Shown here one piece after another: positions 43,145 through 62,432 of a DNA stretch of 64,000 bases. The stretch covers positions 1 to 64,000 of the forward strand of contig NZ_JAIVAH010000028.1 of assembly GCF_020171745.1 (NCBI RefSeq). The letters are read 5' to 3'. The notes beneath the pieces are model-generated. The model ran no database searches. It was not told where the DNA came from and saw only the letters and a program-made list of their open reading frames with translations. A program made the translations under genes and the position numbers. Position 1 is the first letter of the stretch. Each line of letters starts with the position of its first letter. The stretch is from Prescottella equi. Its GTDB lineage: Bacteria; Actinomycetota; Actinomycetes; Mycobacteriales; Mycobacteriaceae.

Positions 43145-46134
<2,990 letters not shown>

Positions 46135-46177
46135 TGGACGCTCCCGTCTGTAATTCGATGTTGACTTGCCCTGAGAC

Positions 46178-46191
46178 TAGAACACGTTCTC
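46178..46191. promoter_or_regulatory. KstR operator, hsaA side
   Basis: TAGAACACGTTCTC fits the KstR consensus except for the final A. It is 44 bases upstream of hsaA. Confidence 0.78.
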
Positions 46192-46281
46192 TTCCGTGTC
46201 GAGGAAACGTCAATTCCACTGGTCACACGAAGTCTTTGCCGATAGTAAGCACGCGAAATCTAGCGGAATCTCCCGAAGTTC

Positions 46282-46295
46282 TATAACGTGTTCTA
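46282..46295. promoter_or_regulatory. KstR operator, kshA side
   Basis: TATAACGTGTTCTA fits TnnAACnnGTTnnA fully and is identical to the kstD site at 57894. It is 30 bases upstream of kshA. Confidence 0.87.
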
Positions 46296-46324
46296 GCAAC
46301 AGCTAGAAGGGATGTGAGGTACTG

Positions 46325-47485
46325 ATGGCGCAGATTCGTGAGATCGATGTGGGAGCTCCGCAGACGCGTTTCGCACGCGGTTGGCACTGCATCGGTCTGG
46401 AGAGCGAGTTCCTCGACGGGAAGCCGCACGCAGTCGAAGCGTTCGGCACCAAGCTGGTGGTGTTCGCCGACAGCCAGGACAAGCTCCACGTACTCGACGC
46501 GTACTGCCGGCACATGGGCGGCGACCTCAGCCAGGGCGAGATCAAGGGCGACTCGGTCGCATGCCCGTTCCACGACTGGCGCTGGGGCGGTAACGGCAAG
46601 TGCACCGACATCCCCTACGCCCGTCGAGTGCCGCCGATCGCGCGGACCCGCACGTGGACCACGCTGCAGGAGAACAAGCAGCTGTTCATCTGGAACGACC
46701 CGGAGGGCAACCCCCCGCCGGACGACGTCACGATTCCGCGCCTGCCGGAGGTCTTCACCGACGAGTGGACCGACTGGAAGTGGAACCGCATCCTCGTCGA
46801 GGGTTCCAACTGCCGCGAGATCGTCGACAACGTCGTCGACATGGCGCACTTCTTCTACGTTCACTTCGGCTTCCCGAAGTACTTCAAGAACGTCTTCGAG
46901 GGCCACATCGCGTCGCAGTACCTGCAGAACCACGGCCGGCCCGACGTCGGGAGCATGGGCACCCAGTACGGCGATTCGGTGCTGGACTCGGAGGCGTCGT
47001 ACTTCGGCCCGTCCTACATGGTGAACTGGCTGCACAACAACTACAGCGGCTACAAGGTCGAGAGCATCCTGATCAACTGCCACTACCCGGTCACCCAGGA
47101 CTCGTTCGTGCTGATGTACGGCGTCGCCGTACAGAAGCCGAAGGGCCTCGACGACGCCACCAGCGACAAGCTGGCGACGAAGTTCACCGAGGGTGTCGCC
47201 ATGGGCTTCGAGCAGGACGTCGCGATCTGGAAGAACAAGACCAAGATCGAGAATCCGCTGCTCTGCGAGGAGGACGGCCCGGTCTACCAGCTGCGTCGCT
47301 GGTACGACCAGTTCTACGTGGACGTCGCCGACATCGATGAGAAGGCGACGCAGCGCTTCGAGTTCGAGATCGACACCACCAAGGCCGTCGAGGCCTGGCA
47401 GCGTGAGGTCGACGCGAACCTGGCGCGCCAGGCGGAGGAGAAGGCGGCGGCCGAATCGGCCGCCGAGCACAAGACTGGAGTGTGA
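46325..47485 (+). CDS. kshA: KshA, oxygenase of 3-ketosteroid 9-alpha-hydroxylase
   Basis: This 386-residue Rieske oxygenase hydroxylates C9 of 3-ketosteroids, which with KstD opens ring B. The Rieske ligands are Cys61/His63 and Cys80/His83 (CRHMGG...CPFHDW); the mononuclear iron is held by His175, His180 (DMAHFFYVH) and Asp298. The reductase KshB is not in the window. The ATG follows GTGAGG. It is divergent from hsaA and followed after two bases by a small Cys-rich protein. Confidence 0.95.
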   Translation: MAQIREIDVGAPQTRFARGWHCIGLESEFLDGKPHAVEAFGTKLVVFADSQDKLHVLDAYCRHMGGDLSQGEIKGDSVACPFHDWRWGGNGKCTDIPYARRVPPIARTRTWTTLQENKQLFIWNDPEGNPPPDDVTIPRLPEVFTDEWTDWKWNRILVEGSNCREIVDNVVDMAHFFYVHFGFPKYFKNVFEGHIASQYLQNHGRPDVGSMGTQYGDSVLDSEASYFGPSYMVNWLHNNYSGYKVESILINCHYPVTQDSFVLMYGVAVQKPKGLDDATSDKLATKFTEGVAMGFEQDVAIWKNKTKIENPLLCEEDGPVYQLRRWYDQFYVDVADIDEKATQRFEFEIDTTKAVEAWQREVDANLARQAEEKAAAESAAEHKTGV

Positions 47486-47896: not shown

Positions 47897-48658
47897 TCAG
47901 CGCCGGATCGTGGACTCGATGAGGTCGTAGCCGAGTTCGGGATGGATCGCGTTCGTGGGGTCCACTCGCGAGAACCACGTCGAGTCGGCCTCCGGGTGCG
48001 GCCCGACCACACCCACCCGTCCCGATCCGTACGGCGCGACCACAGCCGCGGGCTGTCCACCCTGATAGGTGGCGACGATCTCGGCGTTCGCACCGGGTTC
48101 GAGCCAGAACGCCGGCCCGTCCTGGAAGAAGACCGTGCGCGCACTCCCCCGCCACCGGACGTCGATCCGGGACGCCGCGGCGGTCTTCACCGTGGCGTTC
48201 GACGCCGTGATGTACTGCCACGTGTCGCCGGGCAGCAGGTTGAATCCGGGCGTGGCGCCGGCGAGGTACCCGCCGAGGCAGAACCCGAGATAGTTGCCGC
48301 CGCCCGCCACCCACTCGCGGATGACGGTCGCATGCGGACTCATCGCCGCCCAGCCCTTCGACAGGCTGGGACCGCCCGGCTGTGCGTACACGACCGCCCC
48401 CGCCAGGTTCGCTTTCGTGATCTTCTTCTTCTCGTTGGGACCCACGTATTCGGTGCGGAATCCGGTTGGGGAATCCCGCAGCAGCTGCGCCACCGCCTCG
48501 GGGCAGCCGGGCAACGACGCGGGCCCTCGGTAGACGAGCGCCAGCGGCTTGGTCGTGGCGGCCGCGCGGCTCGCACCCGCGGCCGATGCCACGGACGGCG
48601 TCAGGGCGAGAGCACCCGCCACACCCACACCTGCCAGAAATCCTCGTCGACTGATCAC
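47897..48658 (-). CDS. Tat-exported BPL_N/amidotransferase-like protein
   Basis: This 253-residue protein has a twin-arginine signal SRRGFLAGVGVAGALAL and a class I glutamine-amidotransferase-like (BPL_N) domain: PLALVYRGPASLPGC, YAQPGG, GGNYLGFCLGGYLAG with a nucleophile-elbow Cys127, and VVGPHPEAD near the end. The domain is found at the N-terminus of eukaryotic biotin protein ligases; bacterial stand-alone members have no agreed activity. It is divergent from the Pls-like NRPS gene and is a paralogue of the gene at 53172-53846, suggesting a shared job inside and outside the cell. Confidence 0.82.
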   Translation of the reverse strand: MISRRGFLAGVGVAGALALTPSVASAAGASRAAATTKPLALVYRGPASLPGCPEAVAQLLRDSPTGFRTEYVGPNEKKKITKANLAGAVVYAQPGGPSLSKGWAAMSPHATVIREWVAGGGNYLGFCLGGYLAGATPGFNLLPGDTWQYITASNATVKTAAASRIDVRWRGSARTVFFQDGPAFWLEPGANAEIVATYQGGQPAAVVAPYGSGRVGVVGPHPEADSTWFSRVDPTNAIHPELGYDLIESTIRR

Positions 48659-49167
48659 ATTGCGCCTTTCGTCGTGCTCACATGCCGCCGGCGCCCGGCC
48701 GGCGGCCCCCTACGATCCGCGGGCGATCCGGCGGATACATGCTGTTCGGGACCCGAGGCCGACGGCCGCGGGTCCCGTGTCACGCATCACGATTTGAGCA
48801 GAAAAAGGGTTAAACCGCGGGTGAATCCGCAGTCGACACCCGGCAGCCCCCGCGAGGTCCTTCCCGGCCACCGAAAGCGGACCGGACGACCGACCAGATA
48901 GACCGGGTCGAACGGCCCGATTCTGCAAGTGGTCAACCGTTTGACCAGTAGCAATGCGCACGACCGACCACTCGGCATGTCGACGGCACGGCGCTCGCGC
49001 CGCCCGACTCCCCCGATGTCGAATCCGACACACTGCCAGCATTTTCGGAGGCCTCGCGCAGAACGATCACCGAAAGAGTCACTGGTTCGATTGCAAGTTG
49101 TGACCAATGGGGGGACACCGCGGCACGGAGACCGGACCCCCGAGAGACTCGACTGCGAGGTGGGATC
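48659..49167. other. Divergent promoter region of the Pls-like cluster
   Basis: This 509-base region separates the exported BPL_N-like gene from the NRPS. It has no convincing coding frame. It contains the dyad at 48930-48947 and must hold promoters for both directions. Base composition is slightly less GC-rich than the flanking genes. Confidence 0.55.
48930..48947. promoter_or_regulatory. 18-bp perfect inverted repeat upstream of the Pls-like NRPS
   Basis: TGGTCAACCGTTTGACCA has perfect 7-base arms around CCGT. It is 221 bases before the NRPS start. It is distinct from the KstR and KstR2 sites; the binding protein is not known. Confidence 0.6.
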
Positions 49168-52100
49168 GTGAATCGACGGGATCTTCGAATTCGCGCCGAG
49201 AGCCGATTGCGCTCCCGGAAGACCGCACCCGCAGGCCGTCTGCCACGCCGTCTCGAGCAGGTGTTCGAGAACTCGTGCGATCGCACCCCCGCCGCTGTCG
49301 CGCTCGAGTGCGACGACCGCCGGTTCACGTACGCCGAACTCGACGGCCGCGCGAACCAGCTCGCCCGGCTGCTGATCGACCTGGGCCTCGAGTCGGGCAA
49401 TCGCGTCGCGATCCTGCTCGAACGCTCCCCCGAGACCTACGTCGCACTGCTGGCCGCGCTCAAGGCCGGTGCCTCGTTCGTCCCCATCGATCCGGGCGCT
49501 CCGCAGGAGCGCATCGGCTACATCACCTCGAACGCCGAGGTCGATCTGGTGCTCACGTCGTCGTCGTTCGCCGACACCCTCGCTCCCCTCGGGCACCGCT
49601 GGGTCGAGATCGACACCGAGGCCGGCACCCTCGACGCCTACCCGACCGAACGCCCGTCGGTGCAGTTCGACGCCGCCGCGGACCCCACCTGCTACGTCAT
49701 CTACACCTCGGGCTCGACGGGCCAGCCCAAGGGCGTCGAGGTGGCACAGTCGAGCATCTGCAACTTCCTCGACGTCGTGCCCGGCGTGTACGACGTGCGG
49801 CCGACCGACCGTGTCTACCAGGGCATGACCATCTCGTTCGATTTCTCGATCGAGGAGATCTGGCCGACGTGGGCGGTCGGCGCGACCCTCGTCGCCGGAC
49901 CTACCGACTCGCGGCGACTGGGCGGCGAACTCGCCGATTTCCTCGAGGACGCGGCCGTCACCGTGCTGTATTGCGTGCCGACACTGCTCGCGACCATCCC
50001 GCGTGAACTTCCTTTGCTGCGAAGCGTTCTCGTCGGCGGCGAGGCGTGCCCCGGCGAACTCGTCGAACGCTGGAGCCGCCCCGGCCGGCGCATCCTCAAC
50101 ACGTACGGCCCCACCGAGGCGACCGTCACGGCGACGTGGTGCGAACTGCTTCCCGGCCGGATCGTCACGATCGGCCGCCCCTTGCCGACGTATTCGGTGG
50201 TGCTGCTCGACGACCATCGGCTGCAGGTGCCGGACGGCGAGATCGGCGAGATCTGCATCGGCGGACCCGGCGTCGCCCGTGGCTACGTGGGCCGTCCCGA
50301 GCAGACTGCCGAGCGGTTCATCGACCACCCCCATGCCGCGCCGGGCCGAAAGCTCTACCGCACAGGCGATCTGGGGCGGATCACGGCAGAAGGCGAGATC
50401 GAGTACCTGGGCCGCGCGGACAGCGAGGTCAAGATCCGCGGTCACCGTGTCGATCTGGGCGAGATCGAGAGCGTGCTGCTCGAGGACGTCCAGATCGCCA
50501 GCAGCGTCGTGGCGCTCGTCTCGAACTCCGGGTCGGAGGAACTGGCGGCGTTCGTGGTGCCCCGGTCGGGCACCTCCCGCACCGAGCTCGACGACGACGC
50601 CGCGCGCGTGGTGCTGATCGAGCGGCTCCTGACCGAACTGCACAGCCGCCTGCCCGAGTACATGGTCCCGGCCTTCCTCGACATCGTCGACGAACTGCCG
50701 ACCATGCCCAGCGGCAAGGTCGACCGGTCGCGTCTCCCGGTTCCGGGTCCCCGCCGGGTCCTCGGCTCGTCCGGCCCCGTCGAGGAGCCCCGCGACGCGG
50801 CCGAGACGCGGCTGCGCGGGATCTGGGCGGAAGTGCTCGGACTCGAACCTGCCGCGCTGTCCGTCGAGGCCGACTTCTTCACCGAACTGGGCGGGCACTC
50901 CCTCGCCGCCGCACGCCTGGTGTCGGTGCTACGCGAGTCCGCGGGCGACCACGCCGTGGGCCTGCGTGACGTCTACACCCATCCGACGGTGCGTGCGCTC
51001 GCGGCCGCGCTGACCGCCGTCCCCTCGGGGGGATCCGGCGTCGCCCACCCCGACGACGATCTCGACCCGTTGGAGCACAGCACCTTCCGTGTCGCCGTCG
51101 CGGGCGCGGCGCAGGCGGCGGCGCTGCTCCTGATGCTGCTCGTGGTGACGCTGCCGGTGTCGATCGTGTACAGCATCCATCACGGCCAGCCGTCGTTCCA
51201 GGCGCTGCGGGACCTGCTGATCGCGACGGTGCCGACGTATCTCGGTGTCCGATGGGTACTTCCGGTCCTCGTCGTGCGACCGCTCTCGCGGGGGCTGAAG
51301 CCGGGACGCTACCCGCTGTGGGGCGCCACGTACCTGCGACTGTGGGCGATCGACCGGGTCCTGGCGCTGTCCCCGATGCCGGTGCTCGCCGGGTCGCCGC
51401 TGATGGCGTCGTTCCTCCGCGCCGTCGGCGCACGGGTGGGGCGGGACACCGAGATCGGCACCAGTTCGATCCCGTTCCCCGCGATGGTCCGTCTCGGGGA
51501 CGGCGTCACGATCGGCTACAACGCCGACCTGCGCGCCTGGAAGGTGGTGTCCGGCTGGGTCGTCGTCGAGAACGTGGTGGTCGAGGACCGCGCCTTCGTC
51601 GGCGCCAACAGCGTGCTCGAACCGGGCGCGCACGTGGAGCATTCGGCGATGCTGGCCGACCAGTCGGTGCTCGACCGCGGACGGCGTCTGCCGGCCGGAC
51701 AGCGCTGGGCGGGGTCCCCGCCGCAGCCGGTCGACGCGCTCGACGCCGCCGTCGAGGCGATGGCTGCCGACACTCCCCCGCCCCCGTGGTCGAGGCGCCT
51801 GCTCGTCGCCGCGGCGCTGGGCCTGGCCGCCCTCGAACTCGTCGCGATCGCGACGCTCGTCCCCAGCCTGGTGCTGGTCTGGTACGTACTGCTCGAGTGG
51901 GGCATGATCGCGTCCTTCCTCGCGACGCTCGCGACCGGCACCGTCTACGTGGCGAGCGTGTGCGCGGCCGTGGCACTCGGCAAGCGCCTCCTTCTCCCGC
52001 ACGTGCCCGTCGGCATCCAGAACGCCCGCAGCGGCCTCGGCGTCCGGAAGTGGATGACCGACAAGCTATTCCTGATGAGCCTCACCTACACCGGCTCGCT

Positions 52101-53175
52101 CTACGCGACCCTGTACACCGCGCCGTGGCTGCGCATGCTCGGCGCCCGGGTGGGTCGAGGCGCAGAGGTCTCGACCGCTGCGCACATCGACCCCGACCTG
52201 CTCACCATCGGCAACGACAGCTTCGTCGCCGACATGGCGAGCGTCGGCGGGTCGTCGTTCTGCAACGGCCGGGTCGCGTTCGACACCACCACCGTCGGCG
52301 ATCGCGCGTTCGTCGGCAACGCCGCCTTCGTCCCTGCCGGTACGCACACCGGTGACCGCTCGCTCGTCGGCGTGCTGACGGTGCCCGGCCGGGACGGTGT
52401 GCCCGCGGACTCGTCGTGGCTCGGCTCGCCCGCCATCTACCTGCCCGCCCGCCAGGACAGCGGCGATTTCGCGGAGTCCGACACGTTCGCCCCGCCGCGT
52501 TCGGTGGTCGCGCACCGGTTGTTCATCGAGTTCTTCCGGATCACCCTGCCCGCGACCCTGATCGGCGTGAGCCTGTTCGTGTACCTGCTCGCACTGTCCC
52601 AGGTGGCCCGCTCGTCGGGACTGCTGGTGACGATCGCGGTGGCGCCGTTCATCGCGATCGCGACCGCGATCGGCGTGGTGCTGTACGCGTCGGCGGTGAA
52701 GCGGAACATGGTGGGCGTCTACGAGCCCCGCGTGGAACCCCTGTGGGCCAGGTTCGTCCGGCGTTCCGAGTTCGCCACCGGTATCTACGAGGCCGCCGCG
52801 GTCCCGGTCCTGCTCGACCAGTTGAAGGGCACCCCGTTCCTCCCGACCGCGCTGCGCGGTTTCGGCGCGCAGATCGGGCGGCGCACCTGGATCGGCACGA
52901 CTTACCTGACGGAGTTCGACCTCGTACGGATCGGCGACGGCGCGGCCGTCGGGTCCAACGCCTCGATGCAGACCCACCTGTTCGAGGACCGCGTCATGAA
53001 GATGTCGGTCGTCACGGTCGGTGCCGACGCGACGGTCGGCACGCGGTCCATCGTGCTCTACGACGCCACCGTCGGCGACGGCGCCGAACTCGGCCCGCTG
53101 TCGCTGCTCATGAAGGGCGAGCACCTGCCCGCCGCCACCCGCGCCAACGGCATCCCGGCACAGGTGGAGCGATGA
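49168..53175 (+). CDS. Pls/PosA-family membrane non-ribosomal peptide synthetase
   Basis: This 1335-residue single-module NRPS has the architecture of epsilon-poly-L-lysine synthetase. The adenylation domain (about 30-540) shows CYVIYTSGSTGQPKGVE, NTYGPTEATV, YRTGDL, SEVKIRGHRVDLGEIE and a Lys in MPSGKVDR. The carrier domain has GGHSL with Ser578 for phosphopantetheine. There is no condensation or thioesterase domain. Six transmembrane segments lie near 641-672, 684-705, 876-898, 900-938, 1118-1143 and 1152-1177, separating three left-handed beta-helix-like domains with GAxVGxxxxIG repeats. The GTG follows GAGGTGGG; the stop overlaps the next gene (ATGA). The product is probably a homopolymer or short peptide of a basic amino acid; identity unknown. 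Confidence 0.9.
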   Translation: MNRRDLRIRAESRLRSRKTAPAGRLPRRLEQVFENSCDRTPAAVALECDDRRFTYAELDGRANQLARLLIDLGLESGNRVAILLERSPETYVALLAALKAGASFVPIDPGAPQERIGYITSNAEVDLVLTSSSFADTLAPLGHRWVEIDTEAGTLDAYPTERPSVQFDAAADPTCYVIYTSGSTGQPKGVEVAQSSICNFLDVVPGVYDVRPTDRVYQGMTISFDFSIEEIWPTWAVGATLVAGPTDSRRLGGELADFLEDAAVTVLYCVPTLLATIPRELPLLRSVLVGGEACPGELVERWSRPGRRILNTYGPTEATVTATWCELLPGRIVTIGRPLPTYSVVLLDDHRLQVPDGEIGEICIGGPGVARGYVGRPEQTAERFIDHPHAAPGRKLYRTGDLGRITAEGEIEYLGRADSEVKIRGHRVDLGEIESVLLEDVQIASSVVALVSNSGSEELAAFVVPRSGTSRTELDDDAARVVLIERLLTELHSRLPEYMVPAFLDIVDELPTMPSGKVDRSRLPVPGPRRVLGSSGPVEEPRDAAETRLRGIWAEVLGLEPAALSVEADFFTELGGHSLAAARLVSVLRESAGDHAVGLRDVYTHPTVRALAAALTAVPSGGSGVAHPDDDLDPLEHSTFRVAVAGAAQAAALLLMLLVVTLPVSIVYSIHHGQPSFQALRDLLIATVPTYLGVRWVLPVLVVRPLSRGLKPGRYPLWGATYLRLWAIDRVLALSPMPVLAGSPLMASFLRAVGARVGRDTEIGTSSIPFPAMVRLGDGVTIGYNADLRAWKVVSGWVVVENVVVEDRAFVGANSVLEPGAHVEHSAMLADQSVLDRGRRLPAGQRWAGSPPQPVDALDAAVEAMAADTPPPPWSRRLLVAAALGLAALELVAIATLVPSLVLVWYVLLEWGMIASFLATLATGTVYVASVCAAVALGKRLLLPHVPVGIQNARSGLGVRKWMTDKLFLMSLTYTGSLYATLYTAPWLRMLGARVGRGAEVSTAAHIDPDLLTIGNDSFVADMASVGGSSFCNGRVAFDTTTVGDRAFVGNAAFVPAGTHTGDRSLVGVLTVPGRDGVPADSSWLGSPAIYLPARQDSGDFAESDTFAPPRSVVAHRLFIEFFRITLPATLIGVSLFVYLLALSQVARSSGLLVTIAVAPFIAIATAIGVVLYASAVKRNMVGVYEPRVEPLWARFVRRSEFATGIYEAAAVPVLLDQLKGTPFLPTALRGFGAQIGRRTWIGTTYLTEFDLVRIGDGAAVGSNASMQTHLFEDRVMKMSVVTVGADATVGTRSIVLYDATVGDGAELGPLSLLMKGEHLPAATRANGIPAQVER

Positions 53176-53846
53176 TCGCGACCGCCCGCCCCCTCGCGCT
53201 CGTCTACCGCGGACGGGCGTCGCTGCCGGGCTGCTCCGAGTCGGTGGCCGACCTGTTGCGGGCCAGCCACTGGAACTTCGACGTCCGGTACGTGGGCCCG
53301 CGTGAGGAACTCCCGCTCACCGCGGACGTCCTCGCCCGCGCGACGCTCTACGCCCAGCCCGGCGGGGGCACCCTGCGCGCGGCGTGGCGGCGGATGCGCA
53401 AGCACAACAAGCTCGTTCGCGGTTTCGTCGCGGGCGGCGGGCGCTACCTCGGGTTCTGCCTCGGCGGCTACCTCGCCGGCGCCACCCCCGGATTCGACCT
53501 GCTCCCCGGCGACACCGACCAGTACATCGCGACGGATCGCGCCACCGTCGCCTCGACGCGGCCCGCCGTCGTCGAGGTGGACTGGCGCGACAACCGCCGC
53601 AGCCTCTATTTCCAGGACGGAGCGACCTTCCACGTGGAACCCCGAACCCCCGAACTCGACGTGATCGCGACGTACCCCAACGGCGAAATCGCCGCACTCG
53701 CCGTTCCCTTCGGCGAGGGGCGGGTCGCCGTGGTCGGCCCGCACCCCGAGGCCGACGCCGACTGGTTCCGAGACTCGGGCCTCCGGGTCCCCGCCCACAG
53801 CTCGCTGCCCACCGGGCTCGAGCTGGTGGACGCGGTGATGCGCTGA
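53172..53846 (+). CDS. Cytosolic BPL_N/amidotransferase-like protein
   Basis: This 224-residue protein is a paralogue of the exported one at 47897 but has no signal peptide. It shares LALVYRGRASLPGC, YAQPGGGTL, GGGRYLGFCLGGYLAG with Cys96, LYFQDGATFHVEP and VVGPHPEAD. It overlaps the NRPS stop as ATGA and the following gene by one base (TGATG), so it is made together with the synthetase. A role in trimming, releasing or amidating the Pls-type product is inferred from coupling only. Confidence 0.82.
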   Translation: MIATARPLALVYRGRASLPGCSESVADLLRASHWNFDVRYVGPREELPLTADVLARATLYAQPGGGTLRAAWRRMRKHNKLVRGFVAGGGRYLGFCLGGYLAGATPGFDLLPGDTDQYIATDRATVASTRPAVVEVDWRDNRRSLYFQDGATFHVEPRTPELDVIATYPNGEIAALAVPFGEGRVAVVGPHPEADADWFRDSGLRVPAHSSLPTGLELVDAVMR

Positions 53847-55099
53847 TGAGCACGTCGCTGCACAGCCCCGCCCCGGCGTCCGGCACCGCGAACGCACCCG
53901 CCCGGAGCCGGCGCCTCACCGCGATCGACGCCACCCGCGGTCTCGCGGTCCTCGGCATGATCGCGGTGCACTCACTCAACGCCTACGACGACTCCTACAA
54001 CCCGACCTGGACGTACAAGCTGTCCGCGGGTCACGCGTCGGCGATCTTCGCGGTCCTCGCCGGCGTCGGCATCGCGTTCATCTCGCGCCGACGGCAACAG
54101 GTCCGCGGCCCGCAGGCGACCGCGACGTCGTGGTCGCTCGTGGGCCGCGCCCTCATGGTCGGCCTCATCGGTCTGACGCTCGGCTTCACCGACAGCGAGT
54201 ACGGCGTCGTCATCCTCGGCTACTACGCCGTGATGTTCCTGCTCGCGATCCCGCTGATCTACCTCGGTACCCGGACGCTGGCAGCGGTGGCGCTCACCCT
54301 CGCGGTCACCACGCCCGTCGTCAGCCAGGTCCTGCGTCCGCATCTGCCCGAACCGCTGGGAATGCAGCCGTCGTTCGACGCGCTGCTGCACGCGCCGCTG
54401 CGGCTCCTGTCGGACCTCGCGTTCACCGGCGAGTTCCCGGCCACGGTGTGGATGACGTACGTGTGCGTCGGTCTCCTCGTGGGCCGACTGAACCTCACCG
54501 CGTTCCGCACCGCGGCCACGCTCGCCGCGTCGGGCATGGCACTCATGCTGTCGTCCGCCGCCGTGTCGTGGCTCGTGCTGTATCCGATGGGCGGGCTCGA
54601 GCGGATCGAGGCGATCGAGGACCCCGAATCCGTCTCGGAGATCCTCACGTTCGGCGCCGACGGCACCGTCCCCACGTCGAGCTGGTGGTGGCTCGGCGTC
54701 GCGAGCCCGCACACCGGCACACCGCTCGATCTGATGGCCACCCTCGGCAGTTCGCTGCTGGTCCTCGGCGCGATGCTGCTGCTCGGTCACGTCACCCATC
54801 GTGTCTGGGCCCGGGTGATCAGGGTCGCGCTCGCCCCGCTCGCGGCGATCGGCAGCATGTCGCTCACGATCTACGTCAGCCACATCCTCTTCGTGAACTC
54901 CGATTTCGACGTCTACGGCCCGTGGTCCGGCTACATCCGGCAGCTGGTCTTCATGTTCGCGTTCGCGCTGGCATGGCGTGCGACGGCCGGACGCGGCCCA
55001 CTCGAGGGGCTCGTCGCGTTCGTCACCACCCGGATCAAGCGCGTCTCGCTGCGCCGGACGGAGAACCGGATCACAACAGGGACAAGCGTTTCGCCTTGA
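53846..55099 (+). CDS. DUF418/HGSNAT-like membrane acyltransferase-type protein
   Basis: This 417-residue polytopic protein begins RRLTAIDATRGLAVLGMIAVH, the heparan-alpha-glucosaminide-acetyltransferase-like N-terminal signature, with about ten helices and a C-terminal DUF418-like SLTIYVSHI. Such proteins are presumed to move acyl groups across the membrane. It is coupled to the BPL_N-like gene. Acylation or export of the NRPS product is a hypothesis. Its last 29 bases overlap the 3' end of the convergent STAND-LuxR gene. Confidence 0.82.
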   Translation: MSTSLHSPAPASGTANAPARSRRLTAIDATRGLAVLGMIAVHSLNAYDDSYNPTWTYKLSAGHASAIFAVLAGVGIAFISRRRQQVRGPQATATSWSLVGRALMVGLIGLTLGFTDSEYGVVILGYYAVMFLLAIPLIYLGTRTLAAVALTLAVTTPVVSQVLRPHLPEPLGMQPSFDALLHAPLRLLSDLAFTGEFPATVWMTYVCVGLLVGRLNLTAFRTAATLAASGMALMLSSAAVSWLVLYPMGGLERIEAIEDPESVSEILTFGADGTVPTSSWWWLGVASPHTGTPLDLMATLGSSLLVLGAMLLLGHVTHRVWARVIRVALAPLAAIGSMSLTIYVSHILFVNSDFDVYGPWSGYIRQLVFMFAFALAWRATAGRGPLEGLVAFVTTRIKRVSLRRTENRITTGTSVSP

Positions 55100-57656
55100 C
55101 CAGCGCCTCCTGTCGAGAGCTCACTCCCAGCTTCCGATAGGCGCTGCGCAGCTGACTCTTGACGGTGTTGGGAGAGACGAACAACCGACCGGCTACATCG
55201 ACGATCCCGCTGCCGTCGGCGACAGCACGCAGGACGGCGCGTTCACGATCGGTGAGCGCGATCACCGGCAGCTTCTCCGGGAAGACCCCGCGCTCGTAGC
55301 GACCGGCCACCCGCGACCAGGCGTCCGGCAGGTCTGCCCCCTCGGCGAGGGCCTCGAGCCGGGCGGCCGGCACGGCGGCGAACGGCCGTACCGCTCCGGT
55401 CTGTTCCGAGAGCGAAACGACGCGCAGAAAGATCCTCCGGGCCTGCGCCAACCGGCCCAGGGCCAACTCGGCCTGAGCCTCGACGATCGACGCATCCATG
55501 TAGATCCGGGTGTACGACGCGGCCGAACGGGCGATCGAACGTCGCTCCGCGAGCGCACGCTCCGGGTGTCCGTTCAGCAGTTCCACGCGGGCGCGCGACA
55601 CTCGCACGAAAGCATTCTCGCGCTGACCGTCGCCGAGGATCTGCCAGGCCTCGTTGCCCCGACCCAACGCGCACAGCAACTCGGACTCGGCGGTTGCCAG
55701 CAGAGCCGCGGCACCGGAATCCTCGGTCGTCCATCGTTCGAAGATGACCTTCGCCCGGCGGACGCGCACCAGACCACGATCGGCGGAACCCGTCAGCATG
55801 GCGTGCACGTGGTGCGCGTACTGGACGAAGGCCCAGTACTCCTCGTCGTCGGGAACATCCGCGAGTTCGTCCATCACCGGCGCCGCAGCCTCGATGTCCA
55901 AGCGTTCCAGGGCGACGAGCGCACGCGCGACGGTCGACGGCACCGCGACCATCTCGCCCAGCCGGCCGGGGACAACTCCGTGTCGAGCGACCCGCTCGAG
56001 CCAGGCCTCCGCGTGATGCAGTTCGTCGGCCATCGCGAAATGCAGTGCGAGGCAGGCGGCCGCGTTGGTGGCGACGAATGCAGGGCCGTGCTGCACTGCG
56101 TCCCGGTAGGTGTCGCGGAAGCAGCGAGCGGCCTCGCCGTACCGCCCCGCCAACTGCATCGTGATGGCCCACTGCACCTTCATCACCGAAAGGCCCGCAC
56201 GATCGAGGCCGCTCGGCGACCCCAGGTCGTCGACCACCTTCGCGAGACGCTTGGCAAGGTCCGCGGCGTCGGAGAACTTTCCGACGACCCGGAGTCCGAT
56301 CACGTGTGCAGTCGCAACCTCGATGAGGTCGGTGGCACCCTCGGCCCCCTCGAGCGATGCGAGGTCCTCGATCTCGTCGGCCTGGTCACTGAGCCGCGTC
56401 CAGGTCAGACCCGGGCCGGAGAAGACCGCCCGGCCGGCCCGCAGCGTCGCATCCGACTCCACTACCGCGTCGGGCAGCTTCGCGAGGGCGTCACGCAGCA
56501 AGCCGACGTCCGCGGAGAACACCCGCACCCAATTGCTCTTGAGGATCACGCCGACGAGATTCCAGTCCTGCGCCTCGACCGCGTGGAACAGGGCGCGTGG
56601 AATGTCGTCGGCGGACAGGTAGTACCGCGCGAGGAGCACCGAGTTCGGCAGGGGGCGAATCGGAGTCGTCTTCCTGACTCGCCGCATCAGAGACTCCCTC
56701 AGCGCCGGCACCATCCGCCATTCCCGCGTGCCGGGCGAGGTCGCACGGGAGATCACGCCCGCATACTCGAGATCGATCAGGCGAGCTTCCGAGACCGAAT
56801 CCCCCGTGAGCACCGACAGCACTTCCGGAGTGAGATCTACTGCCGTCGAACAGATCACGACGAGCTCCGACACCCCTTCGAGCATCGGGTCCGCAAGAAT
56901 CGCGTCCTCGACATACGCATCCACGGCGCGCTCGACCGCATCCGCGGCCACACCCCGGCTGGACCCGAACTCCCCGCCGAACAGGCGAGCCACCGACACC
57001 GCCATGCGCGCCAGAACCGACCAGCCCCCGACGAGTTCATGGATCGCGTCGGTGGTCGCTCGATCTGCCGAAAGTCCGGCCAGGGCGAACACCTGCGCCG
57101 TCTCGTCCGTGGTGAACTCCAGGTCGAGCGGAGTGATCACCTGGCAGTCGAGTTCCAGATCTGCCATCCCCCGGAAACACTCGGACGTGCGCACACACAG
57201 GACAACCCGGACGTGGTCCAGATCAACCACCAGGTCGGCGAGATGCGCGTACAGGAGTCGGTCGGCGACCCGATCGGGGTGATCGAGAACCAGCACGACG
57301 GGGGAATCGACCGTCCCGAGAATTCTGTGGACGCGCGCTCGCGACGCCTCGTCCGGCGAGTCCGCGGCGAGAACGTCACCTACCCCCGACGCCGAAACGA
57401 CGGCCGCCGCCACGGACCGCCAGTATCTGTCGGGCGCGCATCCGCGGGACGGCGCAGCCACGCGAACGATCGTTCGTCCTTCGGCACGCTCGAGCCATTG
57501 GGAGACGAGGACACTCTTCCCGGAGCCGCGCGGGCCGCGGACGACCGTGACCGCAGCGTCCCTATCGAGCATCTCGCGCAGTCGTGGCCGATCGAGCAAG
57601 GTGCGGCGCGAACGCGGCGACGACGGCACGCCACGGGTCCCAGTCCCCTCGTCCAT
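55071..57656 (-). CDS. STAND ATPase with C-terminal LuxR DNA-binding domain
   Basis: This 861-residue MalT-like regulator has a P-loop at 41-48 (GPRGSGKS), a Walker-B-like strand VVLVLDHPDRV, a long helical sensor region with TPR-like repeats, and a LuxR HTH at about 795-861 (LTDRERAVLRAVADGSG, FVSPNTVKSQLRSAYRKLGV). The ATG at 57656 is used; the frame stays open far upstream, antisense to kstD and the MaoC gene, but that part has no domain. It is divergent from kstD, so it may act on kstD as well as elsewhere; ligand unknown. Confidence 0.85.
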   Translation of the reverse strand: MDEGTGTRGVPSSPRSRRTLLDRPRLREMLDRDAAVTVVRGPRGSGKSVLVSQWLERAEGRTIVRVAAPSRGCAPDRYWRSVAAAVVSASGVGDVLAADSPDEASRARVHRILGTVDSPVVLVLDHPDRVADRLLYAHLADLVVDLDHVRVVLCVRTSECFRGMADLELDCQVITPLDLEFTTDETAQVFALAGLSADRATTDAIHELVGGWSVLARMAVSVARLFGGEFGSSRGVAADAVERAVDAYVEDAILADPMLEGVSELVVICSTAVDLTPEVLSVLTGDSVSEARLIDLEYAGVISRATSPGTREWRMVPALRESLMRRVRKTTPIRPLPNSVLLARYYLSADDIPRALFHAVEAQDWNLVGVILKSNWVRVFSADVGLLRDALAKLPDAVVESDATLRAGRAVFSGPGLTWTRLSDQADEIEDLASLEGAEGATDLIEVATAHVIGLRVVGKFSDAADLAKRLAKVVDDLGSPSGLDRAGLSVMKVQWAITMQLAGRYGEAARCFRDTYRDAVQHGPAFVATNAAACLALHFAMADELHHAEAWLERVARHGVVPGRLGEMVAVPSTVARALVALERLDIEAAAPVMDELADVPDDEEYWAFVQYAHHVHAMLTGSADRGLVRVRRAKVIFERWTTEDSGAAALLATAESELLCALGRGNEAWQILGDGQRENAFVRVSRARVELLNGHPERALAERRSIARSAASYTRIYMDASIVEAQAELALGRLAQARRIFLRVVSLSEQTGAVRPFAAVPAARLEALAEGADLPDAWSRVAGRYERGVFPEKLPVIALTDRERAVLRAVADGSGIVDVAGRLFVSPNTVKSQLRSAYRKLGVSSRQEALVKAKRLSLL

Positions 57657-57893
57657 GCTGCTCCGCGCAACCCTTCCACCCCGTGATCGACGTCTCGAGT
57701 CTAGCCAGGGCAGGCGCGGGCAGGCGCTCCATGTGCGCCCCGACCTCGGCATCTTCGGCAATTCCGGCGGTGTCTGGACTGCAGTCCCACCGAGCTGTCG
57801 ACACTGAAACGCGTGTTCGTTTGCCACCCGCCCGGGAGCGGGGCCCCGGGAATACTTCCTGGCAGAAAGCATGGACTGGCACGCACCTAGTTC

Positions 57894-57907
57894 TATAACG
57901 TGTTCTA
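57894..57907. promoter_or_regulatory. KstR operator immediately before the kstD start codon
   Basis: TATAACGTGTTCTA fits the KstR consensus fully and is identical to the kshA site. It ends one base before the kstD ATG, leaving no room for a ribosome site, so the transcript may be leaderless. Confidence 0.85.
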
Positions 57908-57908
57908 C

Positions 57909-59600
57909 ATGAGCAAGCAGGAATACGACATCGTCGTCGTCGGCAGCGGTGCTGCAGGCATGACCGCAGCCCTGACCGCGGCGCACAAGGGGCTGAGTGT
58001 GGTCGTGGTCGAGAAGGCCGCCCACTACGGCGGCTCGTCCGCACGGTCGGGCGGAGGTGTCTGGATCCCGAACAACGAGGTGCTGAAGCGGGACGGCGTC
58101 ACCGACACGGTCGACGCCGCGCGCACCTACCTCCACAACATCATCGGCGACGTCGTCGATCCCGCGAAGATCGACACCTACATCGACCGCGGCCCCGAGA
58201 TGCTCTCGTTCGTCATGGAGAACAGCGCGCTCGAGCTGCAGTGGGTGCCCGACTACTCCGACTACTACCCGGAGGCCCCGGGCGGGCGACTCGGCGGCCG
58301 CTCCGTCGAGCCGGTCCCGTTCGACGGCAACCGCCTCGGCGACGACCGCAAGAACCTCGAGCCCGACTACGTCAAGGCGCCGCGGAACTTCGTCATCACG
58401 CAGGCCGACTACCGCTGGCTCAACCTGCTCATGCGCAACCGCCGCGGCCCGCTGCGCGCGATGAAGGTCGGCATGCGATTCCTGGCGGCCAAGGCCCGCG
58501 GCAAGGACCTCCTCGTCCGCGGCCAGGCCCTGATGGCCGGCATGCGAATCGGCCTGCGCGACGCCGGGGTCCCGATCCTGCTGAACACCCCCCTCACCGA
58601 GCTGTACACCGAGGACGGCGCGGTCCGCGGCGTGAAGGTGCTCGTCGACGGTGAGGAGCAGATCATCCGCGCCCGCCACGGCGTCGTCCTCGGCGCGGGC
58701 GGATTCGAGCACAACGACGAGATGCGTAAGAAGTACCAGCGCGGCCCGATCGGCACCGAGTGGACCGTCGGAGCCAAGGCCAATACCGGTGACGGCATCG
58801 CCGCCGGCCAGAAGCTGGGTGCGGCAGTCGAGTTCATGGAGGACTCGTGGTGGGGTCCGTCGATCCCGCTCACCGGCGGTCCGTGGTTCGCACTGTCCGA
58901 GCGCACACTGCCGGGCTCCATGATGGTCAACACGCGCGGCAAGCGCTTCGGTAACGAGGCCGCGCCGTACGTCGAGGCGACGCACATGATGTACGGCGGC
59001 AAGTACGGCCACGGCGAGGGCCCGGGCGAGAACATCCCCACCTGGATGATCCTCGACCAGCGCTACCGCAACCGGTACACGTTCGCAGGTATCACGCCGC
59101 GCTCGCCGTTCCCCGGACGCTGGCTCAAGGCCGGGATCATCGTCAAGGCGAACACGATCGCCGAACTGGCCGAGAAGACCGGCCTTCCGGCCGACACCCT
59201 CGCCGAGACCGTGGCGCGATTCAACGGCTTCGCCCGCAACGGCAAGGACGAGGACTTCGGTCGCGGCGACAGCGGCTACGACCGCTACTACGGCGATCCC
59301 CGTCTGAAGAACCCGAGCCTCGCCGAGATCGACAAGGCGCCGTTCTACGCGATCAAGATGGTGCCCGGCGACCTCGGCACCAAGGGCGGCATCCGCACCG
59401 ACGTCGACGGGCGCGCGCTGCGCGAGGACGGCTCGGTCATCGAGGGCCTGTACGCGGCCGGTAACTGCAGCTCGCCGGTCATGGGCCACACGTACGCCGG
59501 CCCCGGCGCGACCATCGGTCCCGCGATGACCTTCGCGTACCTCGCGGTACTCGACATCGCCGACCGTGCCCGCGCCGCAGCGCCGTCCGTGACGAACTGA
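57909..59600 (+). CDS. kstD: KstD, 3-ketosteroid delta-1-dehydrogenase
   Basis: This 563-residue FAD enzyme desaturates C1-C2 of 3-ketosteroids, making the 1,4-diene that, with 9-alpha-hydroxylation, opens ring B. It shows YDIVVVGSGAAGMTAALTAA at the N-terminus, HYGGSSARSGGGVWIPNNEV, YSDYYPEAPGG, and C-terminal KMVPGDLGTKGGI and MGHTYAGPGATIGPAMTFAY (about 525-544). It resembles Rv3537 throughout. The ATG at 57909 matches the family start; the abutting KstR site implies direct steric repression. It is followed after 12 bases by the MaoC hydratase, as in Rv3537-Rv3538. Confidence 0.95.
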   Translation: MSKQEYDIVVVGSGAAGMTAALTAAHKGLSVVVVEKAAHYGGSSARSGGGVWIPNNEVLKRDGVTDTVDAARTYLHNIIGDVVDPAKIDTYIDRGPEMLSFVMENSALELQWVPDYSDYYPEAPGGRLGGRSVEPVPFDGNRLGDDRKNLEPDYVKAPRNFVITQADYRWLNLLMRNRRGPLRAMKVGMRFLAAKARGKDLLVRGQALMAGMRIGLRDAGVPILLNTPLTELYTEDGAVRGVKVLVDGEEQIIRARHGVVLGAGGFEHNDEMRKKYQRGPIGTEWTVGAKANTGDGIAAGQKLGAAVEFMEDSWWGPSIPLTGGPWFALSERTLPGSMMVNTRGKRFGNEAAPYVEATHMMYGGKYGHGEGPGENIPTWMILDQRYRNRYTFAGITPRSPFPGRWLKAGIIVKANTIAELAEKTGLPADTLAETVARFNGFARNGKDEDFGRGDSGYDRYYGDPRLKNPSLAEIDKAPFYAIKMVPGDLGTKGGIRTDVDGRALREDGSVIEGLYAAGNCSSPVMGHTYAGPGATIGPAMTFAYLAVLDIADRARAAAPSVTN

Positions 59601-59612
59601 CAGGAGACGCCA

Positions 59613-60473
59613 GTGCCCATCGATCCGTCGATCGCGATCGGAGCCGAGTTGCCGGCCCAGGAGTTCTCCTGGACGCCCTCGGACGTCCAGCTCTACCACC
59701 TCGGAATCGGTGCCGGCGCACGCCCGCTCGACCCGCGGGAGCTCGCCTACCTCGACGACGCAAAGCCGCAGGTGCTGCCGACGTTCGCGACGGTCGTCGC
59801 GAACATCCACGCGACCGAGGCGCCGCGGGTCTCGTTCCCGGGCGTCGAGATCGACCTCGCGAAGGTCGTCCACGGCAGCCAGGAGGTCACCGTCCACGCA
59901 CCGATCCCCGCCAGCGGGTCGGCGCGGACCACGACTCGGATCGTCGAGGTGTGGGACAAGGGCAAGGCGGCGGTGATCGTGCAGGAATCCGCGACGGTCG
60001 CGCTCGACGGGTCGCCACTGTGGACGGCGCGCTCGTCCATCTTCGCGCGCGGCGAGGGTGGATTCGGGGGTGAACGCGGACCGTCCGAGTCCGTCGTACT
60101 CCCCGACAGGGCACCGGATTTCGAGTCGATCTCGCAGGTCCTGCCGCAGCAGGCGCTGCTGTACCGGATGTGCGGCGACCGGAACCCGTTGCACTCAGAT
60201 CCGGCATTTGCGACCGCGGCGGGCTTCCCGGCGCCTATTCTGCATGGACTGTGCACCTACGGGATCGTCTGCAAGGCTGCCACCGACACCGTCCTCGACG
60301 GTGATGCCAGCCGCGTCAAGGGATTTCGCGCTCGTTTCGCCGGGGTAGTCTTTCCCGGTGAAAATCTTCGGACGCGAATGTGGCGCGACGGTGACCAGCT
60401 GCTGATCTCTGCAACCGTTCCCGAGCGCGACGACTCACCGGCGCTGGCCGACGTCGTACTCACTGTCGCCTAG
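59613..60473 (+). CDS. hsd4B: MaoC-type 2-enoyl-CoA hydratase, Rv3538/Hsd4B-like
   Basis: This 286-residue double-hotdog hydratase hydrates steroid side-chain enoyl-CoAs. The catalytic segment is GDRNPLHSDPAFA with Asp189 and His194, followed by GFPAPILHGLCTYG. The N-terminal half is the partner hotdog without the catalytic motif. The GTG at 59613 has AGGAG. Pairing with kstD matches Rv3537-Rv3538; the symbol hsd4B follows Rhodococcus usage and is moderately certain. Confidence 0.87.
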   Translation: MPIDPSIAIGAELPAQEFSWTPSDVQLYHLGIGAGARPLDPRELAYLDDAKPQVLPTFATVVANIHATEAPRVSFPGVEIDLAKVVHGSQEVTVHAPIPASGSARTTTRIVEVWDKGKAAVIVQESATVALDGSPLWTARSSIFARGEGGFGGERGPSESVVLPDRAPDFESISQVLPQQALLYRMCGDRNPLHSDPAFATAAGFPAPILHGLCTYGIVCKAATDTVLDGDASRVKGFRARFAGVVFPGENLRTRMWRDGDQLLISATVPERDDSPALADVVLTVA

Positions 60474-60578
60474 CGACGTCCGCACACAGCTGTACCGGTC
60501 GGGTCGGCCCTGACACCGACCCGACCGGGAATATCGCACCCGTACTTCTTTCCCCCTCACACACCTTGGAGTACACGT

Positions 60579-62432
60579 ATGACGCTCAACGACGAGCAGT
60601 TGCGGCTGTCCCGGCGAGGATTCCTCACCGCGGGTGCCGCCGGCGCAGGCGTGCTGGCGGCCGGCGCTCTCGGCGGCTGGACCCCGGCCTTCGCCGTTCC
60701 GGCCGGTTCCGCAGGCTCCCTCGGGTCGCTCGGATCGACCGGCCCGGTGGCACCGCTCCCGACGCCGCCGAACTTCCCGCAGGGCATCGCTCTCTTCCAG
60801 CAGGCGTACCAGAACTGGTCCAAGGAGATCATGCTGGACGCCACCTGGGTGTGCTCGCCCAAGACGGCGGATGACGTGGTCACCATTGCCAACTGGGCGC
60901 ACGCCAACCAGTACAAGGTTCGTCCGCGCGGCGCGATGCACGGCTGGACCCCGCTCACCGTCGAGAAGGGCGCCAACGTCGACAAGGTGATCCTCGTCGA
61001 CACGATGACCCACCTGAACGCCATCACGGTGAACCCGGGCGGCACCGTCGCCACCGTCACCGCGGGCACCGGCGCGAGCATCGAAGCGATCGTCACCGAA
61101 CTGCAGAAGCACAACCTCGGCTGGGCCAACCTGCCCGCGCCGGGTGTGCTGTCGATCGGCGGCGCCCTCGCGGTCAACGCCCACGGCGCCGCGCTCCCCG
61201 CGGAGGGTGAGACGACGCTGCCGGGCCACACCTACGGGTCGCTCAGCAACCTGGTCACCGCACTGACCGCGGTGGTGTGGAACGCGAACACGAACGCGTA
61301 CGAGCTGAAGACGTACCAGCGCAACGATCCCAAGATCTCCCCGATGCTCACCAACCTCGGACGCTGCTTCCTGACGTCGGTGACGATGCAGGCCGGCCCC
61401 AACCTCCGGCAGCGCTGCCAGAGCTACACCGACATCCCGTGGCAGGAGCTCTTCGCCGCGAAGGGTGCCAGCGGCCGGACGTTCGAGAAGTTCGTCGCCG
61501 AGTGCGGTGGCGCCGAGGCGATCTGGTACCCGTTCACCGACAAGCCGTGGATGAAGACCTGGACCAACACGCCGGTCAAGCCGGAATCGGCGAACGGAAG
61601 CCTCGGCTCGCTCGGCTCGCTGGGCTCGCTCGCGGGCATGCCCCCGCAGTCGCGTGAGGTCACGGGCCCGTACAACTACATCTTCTCCGACAACCTGCCG
61701 GAGCCCATCACCGACATGATCGGTGCGATCAACGCCGGGAACCCCGGTATCGCACCGCTGTTCGGCCCCGCGATGTACGGCATCACCGTCGCCGGCCTGG
61801 CCGCGACGAATGCCAACGACATCTGGGGCTGGTCGAAGGACGTCCAGTTCTACATCAAGGCCACGACGCTGCGGCTCACCGAAGGCGGCGGCGCCGTCGT
61901 CACGCGACGCGACAACATCGCGACCGTGATCCACGACTTCACGCAGTGGTTCAACCAGCGCATCGAGTACTACCGCGCGAAGGGCGAGTTCCCGCTCAAC
62001 GGTCCGGTCGAGATCCGCTGCTGCGGACTCGATAAGGCGTCCGACGTCCTGGTGGACTCGGCCGGCCCGTCGACCATCTCCGCGACCCGTCCGCGTCCCG
62101 ACCATCCGGACTGGGACGTCGCCATCTGGCTGAACGTTCTCGGCGTCCCGGGCACCCCCGGCATGTTCGAGTTCTATCAGGAGATGGAGCAGTGGATGCG
62201 GGGACACTACAACAACAACGACGCCACGTTCCGTCCCGAGTGGTCGAAGGGCTGGGCCTTCGGTCCGGACCCGTACACCGATGACGACATCGTCGAGAAC
62301 AAGATGCGGGCCACCTACATGGAAGGCGTCGCGAACGTCCCCAACTGGGACACCGCCAACGCTCGGTACAACGAGATCGACCCGCACCGCGTGTTCTCCA
62401 ACGGATTCATGGACAAGCTGCTCCCGTCATAA
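60579..62432 (+). CDS. Tat-exported type II-like cholesterol oxidase (VAO family)
   Basis: This 617-residue FAD protein is close in pattern to type II cholesterol oxidase of Brevibacterium sterolicum, which carries covalent FAD and converts cholesterol to cholest-4-en-3-one outside the cell. The Tat signal is LSRRGFLTAGAAGAGVLAAG. The FAD domain has RPRGAMHGWTPLTVEKGAN with the presumed flavinylated His, PGVLSIGGALAVNAHG and a substrate domain with YNEIDPHRVFSNGF at the end. Two GSLG-repeat tracts (about 44-53 and 340-353) are odd. TTGGAG precedes the ATG. Its enzyme would feed substrate to KshA/KstD. Confidence 0.87.
   Translation: MTLNDEQLRLSRRGFLTAGAAGAGVLAAGALGGWTPAFAVPAGSAGSLGSLGSTGPVAPLPTPPNFPQGIALFQQAYQNWSKEIMLDATWVCSPKTADDVVTIANWAHANQYKVRPRGAMHGWTPLTVEKGANVDKVILVDTMTHLNAITVNPGGTVATVTAGTGASIEAIVTELQKHNLGWANLPAPGVLSIGGALAVNAHGAALPAEGETTLPGHTYGSLSNLVTALTAVVWNANTNAYELKTYQRNDPKISPMLTNLGRCFLTSVTMQAGPNLRQRCQSYTDIPWQELFAAKGASGRTFEKFVAECGGAEAIWYPFTDKPWMKTWTNTPVKPESANGSLGSLGSLGSLAGMPPQSREVTGPYNYIFSDNLPEPITDMIGAINAGNPGIAPLFGPAMYGITVAGLAATNANDIWGWSKDVQFYIKATTLRLTEGGGAVVTRRDNIATVIHDFTQWFNQRIEYYRAKGEFPLNGPVEIRCCGLDKASDVLVDSAGPSTISATRPRPDHPDWDVAIWLNVLGVPGTPGMFEFYQEMEQWMRGHYNNNDATFRPEWSKGWAFGPDPYTDDDIVENKMRATYMEGVANVPNWDTANARYNEIDPHRVFSNGFMDKLLPS

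What the first reader, a model, noticed from the sequence alone, without database searches (positions are those of the whole stretch)
47897..55099. Pls-like membrane NRPS in a compact cluster with two amidotransferase-like paralogues and a membrane acyltransferase
The 1335-residue synthetase has A and T domains, six membrane segments and three beta-helix-like domains but no condensation or thioesterase domain, the plan of epsilon-poly-L-lysine synthetase (established family). Here it is coupled by overlapping stops and starts to a cytosolic BPL_N-like protein and a DUF418/HGSNAT-like membrane protein, with an exported BPL_N paralogue divergent. I know no described system with this set; the product could be an isopeptide homopolymer that is processed on both sides of the membrane.
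Basis: partly seen in the sequence, partly recalled or inferred. Interest (0 to 1): 0.85.

Follow-up and report, generated by a model that had tools for sequence, protein, structure and literature searches.

The report
Cationic isopeptide polymer synthetase gene cluster
A small block of bacterial genes appears to build a positively charged chain of one amino acid and to include enzymes, one inside the cell and one outside, that may trim or disarm that chain.

Summary
The 1335-aa protein is a Pls/PosA-family (cationic homopoly-amino-acid, CHPA) synthetase, overlapping a cytosolic BPL_N gene that overlaps an HGSNAT-like membrane enzyme; a Tat-type BPL_N paralogue lies divergent. The set is a ~9.9-kb island (47897-57802) that also holds a LuxR/LAL regulator and is missing at this site in 7 of 7 congeners examined.
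Linkage is strongly conserved. Of the best 80 named relatives (of 361 found), 67 have BPL_N downstream without a signal peptide; 23 have further BPL_N copies, all with export signals. HGSNAT-like genes occur in 46, M1 peptidases in 27, arginine-dihydrolase-like genes in 17. Ten lysine-type loci have an M1 peptidase (PldII slot) in 9 and BPL_N in 0. Exported BPL_N and M1 peptidase never co-occur (0 of 80). BPL_N folds like a class I glutaminase with an invariant Cys-His-Glu triad; the membrane protein folds like human HGSNAT.
Best reading: a clade beside known CHPA clusters, probably making poly-ornithine or poly-diaminobutyrate, in which BPL_N enzymes take over PldII's trimming/self-protection role. 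Polymer, substrate and BPL_N activity are inferred, not shown. New variant of a known kind.

The parts
47897..48658 (-). Exported BPL_N (class I glutaminase-fold) protein, 253 aa, Tat-type signal SRRGFL
   Evidence: Pfam BPL_N 40.9 bits vs cut-off 24.2; N-terminus; lies with the exported copies in the BPL_N tree
49168..53175 (+). Pls/PosA-family synthetase (A-T-membrane/LbH), 1335 aa, pocket code DFETLGTVTK
   Evidence: TIGR02353 545.6 bits vs 423.1; AMP-binding and PP-binding; code; six membrane peaks
53172..53846 (+). Cytosolic BPL_N protein, 224 aa; C96, H191, E193 invariant in 32 of 32 aligned homologues; 4-bp overlap with the synthetase
53846..55099 (+). HGSNAT-like membrane acetyltransferase, 417 aa
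55071..57572 (-). LuxR/LAL (MalT-like) regulator, about 833 aa (start chosen by codon usage), probable cluster regulator
   Evidence: GerE and AAA matches, MalT-like; homologues at 32-37% divergently upstream of the synthetase in 3 distinct clusters (L048, L052, L054) among 125 loci searched
47897..57802 (.). About 9.9-kb island holding the five genes
   Evidence: In L190 (G004) and L191 (G006) the two flanks lie 27 and 137 bp apart; 5 other congeners have about 2.1 kb there and no cassette

Best explanation
The island encodes a membrane-bound, single-module synthetase that activates one short diamino acid, probably L-ornithine or L-2,4-diaminobutyrate, loads it on its T domain and polymerises it through side-chain isopeptide bonds into a cationic homopolymer (mechanism by homology to Pls/PosA). 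The BPL_N protein translated with it is a cytosolic Cys-His-Glu hydrolase of glutaminase / gamma-glutamyl-peptidase fold that cuts or edits the polymer inside; its Tat-exported paralogue does so outside, in place of the M1 peptidase (PldII) of epsilon-polylysine clusters. The HGSNAT-like enzyme moves acetyl groups from cytosolic acetyl-CoA onto polymer amines at the outer face, blunting charge. The LAL protein regulates the cluster. Shown here: families, folds, conserved active-site residues of BPL_N, localisation signals, linkage, mutual exclusion with M1. Inferred: substrate, product, direction of each reaction, self-protection role.
For: Family membership. Pocket: acidic D and E at positions 1 and 3 as described for CHPAs, Phe at position 2. 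BPL_N in 67 of 80 best relatives, first copy always downstream on the same strand; none of these 67 first copies has an N-terminal 15-residue stretch over hydropathy 1.26, whereas all 27 further copies (23 loci) have one of 1.53 or more, mostly behind a twin arginine. The two BPL_N kinds are an old split (cyt 69 rows needs 3 changes, exp 30 rows 2, shuffled means 31 and 26). Lysine-type loci: M1 peptidase 9 of 10, BPL_N 0 of 10. Exported BPL_N and M1 together in 0 of 80 (23 and 27 alone; Fisher p 1.2e-5, not corrected for kinship; 6 and 9 changes on the synthetase tree) and M1 in 0 of 16 family cassettes. PldII is coupled to pls, outside the membrane, and protects the producer (PMC9223678, passages). 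Arginine-dihydrolase-like gene in 17 of 80, TANAA motif invariant in all 17, nearest solved relatives ArgZ; dat/ask in 0 of 80. HGSNAT fold.
Against: No product or activity was tested. Phe at code position 2 is linked in print to the shorter Dap/Dab substrates, not ornithine (PMC10522769, passages), and the window cluster has no arginine-dihydrolase gene; the genus has a dat/ectB-type gene in 14 of 14 genomes, which suits Dab. Nine of 80 loci that are not cut at once by a contig end lack BPL_N (L121 among them has only 3.3 kb downstream), and 12 have BPL_N without HGSNAT-like, M1 or dihydrolase genes. Three of four plasmid cassettes show no second BPL_N within 5.5 kb in PLSDB's incomplete gene table (present). 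Exported BPL_N proteins also occur in genomes with no TIGR02353 match at E <= 1e-60 (G699, G727, G738), and BPL_N relatives on Agrobacterium plasmids, so the family is not polymer-specific. The LAL regulator is shared by few clusters. Whether HGSNAT's catalytic residues are kept was not tested.
Confidence: 0.5

Rival explanations
1. The cluster makes a CHPA, but BPL_N is a true glutaminase/amidotransferase or thioesterase-like release enzyme: the cytosolic form frees the chain from the T domain or caps it as an amide.
For: Closest folds are glutaminase subunits Pdx2 and HisH; overlapping genes; CHPAs have no thioesterase and release was unexplained in the PDAP paper (PMC4668381, passages).
Against: The exported paralogue keeps the same triad where no T-bound chain exists; lysine-type loci lack BPL_N (0 of 10); exclusion with the M1 peptidase points to a hydrolase outside.
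Confidence: 0.2
2. BPL_N is an acyltransferase of MetA type that modifies the polymer, together with the HGSNAT-like enzyme.
Against: No acyl-CoA would be available to the exported form (inference); glutaminase and gamma-glutamyl peptidase folds match as well or better.
Confidence: 0.1
3. The polymer is an intracellular or wall-bound nitrogen reserve rather than a secreted antimicrobial; BPL_N and arginine dihydrolase belong to its turnover, as in cyanophycin metabolism.
For: Arginine-dihydrolase-like gene in 17 of 80 relatives, nearest solved relatives ArgZ-type proteins Sll1336 and Alr4995; a cytosolic hydrolase.
Against: Epsilon-polylysine is excreted (PMC8117764); the synthetase is a membrane protein; an exported hydrolase and outer-face acetylation fit secretion.
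Confidence: 0.1
4. It is simply another epsilon-polylysine cluster.
For: Same enzyme family.
Against: Different pocket code; 37% identity to the genome's own lysine-type copy; BPL_N instead of M1 downstream.
Confidence: 0.05

Closest known systems
epsilon-poly-L-lysine synthetase Pls with PldII (Streptomyces, Corynebacterium; a lysine-type copy also elsewhere in this genome)
   Same: Domain plan A-T-membrane/LbH; a gene coupled directly downstream
   Different: Pocket code DFETLGTVTK not DAETIGTVVK; BPL_N and HGSNAT-like enzymes in place of the M1 peptidase; an exported BPL_N paralogue
gamma-poly-Dab synthetase clusters (pldA-dat-ask type; L088 here looks like one)
   Same: Phe at code position 2; 45% identity between L088 and the window synthetase
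   Different: No dat or ask beside it (0 of 80 relatives); code positions 6-7 are GT not SA
PosA, delta-poly-L-ornithine synthetase (Acinetobacter baumannii)
   Same: Family, acidic pocket, GTV(S/T)K end of the code
   Different: Met at position 2; single-gene operon in print (PMC10522769)
Class I glutaminases (Pdx2, HisH) and gamma-glutamyl peptidases
   Same: Fold; Cys-His-Glu residues invariant in BPL_N
   Different: No synthase partner seen; one paralogue is exported; substrate unknown
HGSNAT, transmembrane acetyl-CoA:amine N-acetyltransferase
   Different: Bacterial, overlapping a polymer-synthetase operon; acceptor unknown; 13-15% identity

Membership tests
CHPA synthetases (Pls/PosA, TIGR02353) | A domain plus carrier domain, no condensation or thioesterase domain | tested here: met
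CHPA synthetases (Pls/PosA, TIGR02353) | TIGR02353 terminal region above curated cut-off | tested here: met
   545.6 vs 423.1 bits, profile 34-695
CHPA synthetases (Pls/PosA, TIGR02353) | Six membrane segments separating three tandem C-terminal domains | tested here: met
   six hydropathy peaks in three pairs; Hexapep hits
CHPA synthetases (Pls/PosA, TIGR02353) | Acidic pocket residues D and E at code positions 1 and 3 | tested here: met
   rule from PMC10522769 (passages)
CHPA synthetases (Pls/PosA, TIGR02353) | Makes a cationic isopeptide homopolymer | not testable with these tools
   needs biochemistry
epsilon-poly-L-lysine synthetase (Pls proper) | Ala at code position 2 | tested here: not met
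   Phe
epsilon-poly-L-lysine synthetase (Pls proper) | Peptidase gene (PldII) directly downstream | tested here: not met
   BPL_N there; M1 peptidase in 0 of 16 family cassettes
gamma-poly-Dab synthetase cluster | dat and ask genes adjacent | tested here: not met
   none among the window neighbours scanned; 0 of 80 relatives
delta-poly-ornithine synthetase PosA | Substrate L-ornithine | tested here: inconclusive
   code shares D, E, GTV, K but Phe for Met; arginine dihydrolase in 17 of 80 relatives, not in the window cluster
BPL_N / class I glutaminase-like | Pfam PF09825 above cut-off | tested here: met
   53.2 and 40.9 vs 24.2
BPL_N / class I glutaminase-like | Nucleophile Cys, His and Glu triad | tested here: met
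   C96, H191, E193 invariant in 32 of 32; glutaminase fold; their geometry in the model was not measured
BPL_N / class I glutaminase-like | Glutaminase or isopeptidase activity | not testable with these tools
   needs assay
HGSNAT family | HGSNAT_cat above cut-off and HGSNAT fold | tested here: met
HGSNAT family | Catalytic residues of human HGSNAT conserved | not tested
   no residue-level alignment to the solved structures was made

The most novel reading that the evidence does not exclude
A widespread actinomycete clade of cationic homopolymer clusters makes poly-ornithine (or a related short-chain polymer) and controls its length and toxicity with a new two-compartment pair of cysteine isopeptidases of glutaminase fold, the exported one standing in repeatedly for the metallopeptidase PldII, backed by outer-face acetylation through an HGSNAT-type enzyme.
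Probability: 0.35. Interest if true: 0.78.

Novelty: new variant of a known kind. Interest (0 to 1): 0.62.

Why it matters
CHPA polymers such as epsilon-polylysine are used as food preservatives, yet how their makers set chain length and survive their product is only partly understood. This clade offers conserved, paired enzymes in the place of the one known protection enzyme, a clean substitution pattern across many genera, and a first hint of a function for the BPL_N family, for which a keyword search found no paper. It makes substrate and self-protection directly testable with purified proteins.

Tried and rejected
Lysine as substrate: rejected on the pocket code. Dap: the SbnA-type family gave no match over its cut-off in any of 14 congeners, only weaker ones of the kind seen in 12 of 14 control genomes, so less likely in this genus. 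Dat/ask supply beside the synthetase: found in 0 of 80 relatives. Chance neighbourhood: rejected by conservation. Transposon origin of the island: nothing that looked like terminal repeats among the repeats shown; the long inverted pairs I1 and I2 are the two BPL_N genes. phmmer of BPL_N gave one useless match (E 0.56) and an HMM of the HGSNAT-like alignment none among PDB sequences; folds did better. VIA comparisons re-rank Foldseek's list only, so unlisted families are not excluded. The synthetase tree is a quick search with long branches at the outgroups. The gene caller is a simple GC3 script and misses some genes (e.g. BPL_N in L056), so counts of BPL_N, HGSNAT-like and dat/ask use tblastn, M1 and dihydrolase counts use protein clusters (tblastn gave 11 M1 with two queries, clusters 27; dihydrolase 18 and 17); one member of an M1 cluster and one close homologue of the other were checked in Pfam. 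The lysine-type control is the 10 loci with a readable DAET code out of 17 TIGR02353 loci fetched; 2 read DFET (L088, L100) and 5 were not read (L089, L091, L094, L097, L099). The meaning of the Asn in TANAA as a mark of dihydrolases is recalled; a paper search found nothing.
Full report
Observation. The four genes are real and lie where stated. The synthetase (49168-53175) has AMP-binding, AMP-binding_C and PP-binding domains, hexapeptide repeats, no condensation or thioesterase match, and TIGR02353 'Pls/PosA family non-ribosomal peptide synthetase' at 545.6 bits against a cut-off of 423.1. Six hydropathy peaks fall in three pairs. The cytosolic BPL_N gene starts inside the synthetase stop (53172) and the HGSNAT-like gene starts on the last base of the BPL_N stop (53846). 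The divergent paralogue (53% identical) starts MISRRGFLAGVG, a Tat-type signal.

Island. In congeners G004 and G006 the DNA matching the window up to about 47896 (47835 in G006) and from about 57803 (57851 in G006) is almost contiguous (27 and 137 bp between); five further congeners have about 2.1 kb of other, unread DNA there and no cassette (7 of 7 examined). G003, G005 and G009 carry the cassette elsewhere in their genomes. The island therefore holds five genes, including a LuxR/LAL regulator (55071-57572) whose homologues (32-37% identity) lie divergently upstream of the synthetase in three other clusters of the family; the other loci of the 125 searched have none at that threshold. Its flanks are sterol-degradation genes: HsaA, a KshA-type oxygenase, 3-oxosteroid dehydrogenase and cholesterol oxidase.

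Linkage in relatives. In the genus, all 14 genomes have one TIGR02353 match of 743-757 bits (its code was read in three, all lysine type); the second synthetase and both BPL_N proteins occur in exactly the same 4 of 14 (G000, G003, G005, G009; the G003 copy is broken into several frames). In 401 genomes of the family, BPL_N (E <= 1e-15) is in 23; 15 of these 23 carry the cassette, as 16 clusters (one genome has two), each with synthetase, cytosolic BPL_N, HGSNAT-like gene and at least one BPL_N whose N-terminus reads by eye as a Tat or Sec signal. Of the other 8, five were read in wide flanks and three only in 1.5-kb flanks; one of the five (G314, L063) holds a decayed remnant of the synthetase beside a cut BPL_N. 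In 394 genomes of the class, BPL_N is in 11 and TIGR02353 (E <= 1e-60) in 105; in 7 of the 11, BPL_N follows a synthetase of the window's type.

Named relatives. A genome-contig scan with the synthetase's C-terminal alignment returned the best 80 of 361 related loci, from Rhodococcus, Nocardia, Micromonospora, Dactylosporangium, Actinomycetospora, Pseudonocardia, Prauserella, Microbispora, Streptomyces and others. BPL_N is present in 67 of 80, the first copy always downstream on the same strand; among these 67 the highest N-terminal 15-residue hydropathy is 1.26, while the 27 further copies (23 loci) all reach 1.53 or more. One first copy, in L150, is a partial, 39% match without a clear start. 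A start overlaps the synthetase stop by 4 bp in 26 of 67 and lies within -30 to +60 bp in 48. Of the 13 without BPL_N, 4 are cut within 1 kb by a contig end (L118, L131, L138, L142) and 9 are not, though L121 has only 3.3 kb. HGSNAT-like genes occur in 46 (all 23 loci with a second BPL_N among them), M1 peptidases in 27 (HExxH in 27 of 27), arginine-dihydrolase-like genes in 17, dat or ask in none. Rhodococcus plasmids carry the set too: 4 of 5 plasmid hits in that genus, annotated as Pls/PosA NRPS, BPL-N and heparan-alpha-glucosaminide N-acetyltransferase proteins (the fifth is a lone BPL_N); three of those four show no second BPL_N within 5.5 kb.

Control and exclusion. Ten lysine-type loci (code DAETIGTVVK) have an M1 peptidase directly downstream in 9, and BPL_N, HGSNAT-like and arginine-dihydrolase genes in 0. 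In S. albulus PldII is translationally coupled to pls, lies outside the membrane, affects polymer length and is described as needed for self-protection (PMC9223678, passages). That the M1 peptidase of my lysine-type loci is PldII I infer from its place, from 'aminopeptidase' in that paper and from the pls-peptidase operon in PMC8117764 (parts 1-2 of 4 of the text). In the window's clade, the exported BPL_N (23 loci) and the M1 peptidase (27 loci) never occur together (0 of 80; 0 of the 70 loci with at least 5.5 kb of downstream DNA), although the labels change at least 6 and 9 times on the quick synthetase tree. This is the strongest argument that the exported BPL_N does PldII's job; the test is not corrected for kinship. 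The two BPL_N kinds split anciently, so the pair has been kept, not newly duplicated.

Substrate. The pocket code is DFETLGTVTK; the 76 of 80 named relatives that could be read in full all read DFETxGTVTK. PMC10522769 (passages) gives D M E H N G T V S K for the ornithine enzyme and links position 2 to chain length (Phe in Dap/Dab, Met in Orn, Ala in Lys). L088, beside dat- and ask-like genes, reads DFETLSAVTK and is probably the Dab type. Phe favours Dab; GT at positions 6-7 and the recurring arginine-dihydrolase-like gene (nearest solved relatives ArgZ; label changes 6 times on the tree) favour ornithine. I lean to ornithine over Dab by a small margin. The genus has a dat/ectB-type gene in 14 of 14 and no SbnA-type gene over cut-off.

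Literature. No paper describing this set turned up in keyword searches; PMC5550956 on Rhodococcus metabolites has none of the six terms I looked for. The held library lacks most subscription journals, so absence is weak.

Verdict. A real, conserved variant of CHPA clusters, undescribed as far as searched. Confidence that it makes a cationic isopeptide homopolymer about 0.8; that BPL_N acts as its hydrolase about 0.5; ornithine about 0.45, Dab about 0.35.

Noticed in passing
G000:C28:169102-172902 (L064:9064-14258): Second CHPA synthetase of lysine type overlapping an M1 peptidase gene, probably a classical pls-pldII pair. A match of this kind (743-757 bits) is in 14 of 14 congeners; code and M1 neighbour were read in three (L064, L066, L067).
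   Followed up: partly
window 44959-47485 and 57900-62432: The island interrupts a sterol-degradation region (HsaA, KshA-type, 3-oxosteroid dehydrogenase, cholesterol oxidase).
   Followed up: partly
L167 (Streptomyces pinistramenti): A window-type synthetase plus BPL_N is followed directly by a lysine-type synthetase plus M1 peptidase: two CHPA systems side by side.
   Followed up: no
L088 (G622): Synthetase 45% identical to the window's with diaminobutyrate transaminase-like and aspartate kinase-like genes: probable gamma-poly-Dab cluster.
   Followed up: partly
L059, L061, L062, L084, L085, L201: Lone BPL_N proteins away from any CHPA synthetase in the stretches read; the first five have lipoprotein-like N-termini; L201 is from Agrobacterium. 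A family of unknown role.
   Followed up: no
L063 (G314), about 7900-8844: A short stretch 63% identical to the synthetase's A-domain start, then out of frame, beside a cut BPL_N: remnant of a lost cassette.
   Followed up: partly
L045 (G003): The cassette copy in G003 is split over several frames in a 79%-complete assembly; error or decay not decided.
   Followed up: no
L128: Record titled Rhodococcus sp. IEGM 1379 is labelled as a cyanobacterium by the tree tool's taxonomy; probably a label fault.
   Followed up: no
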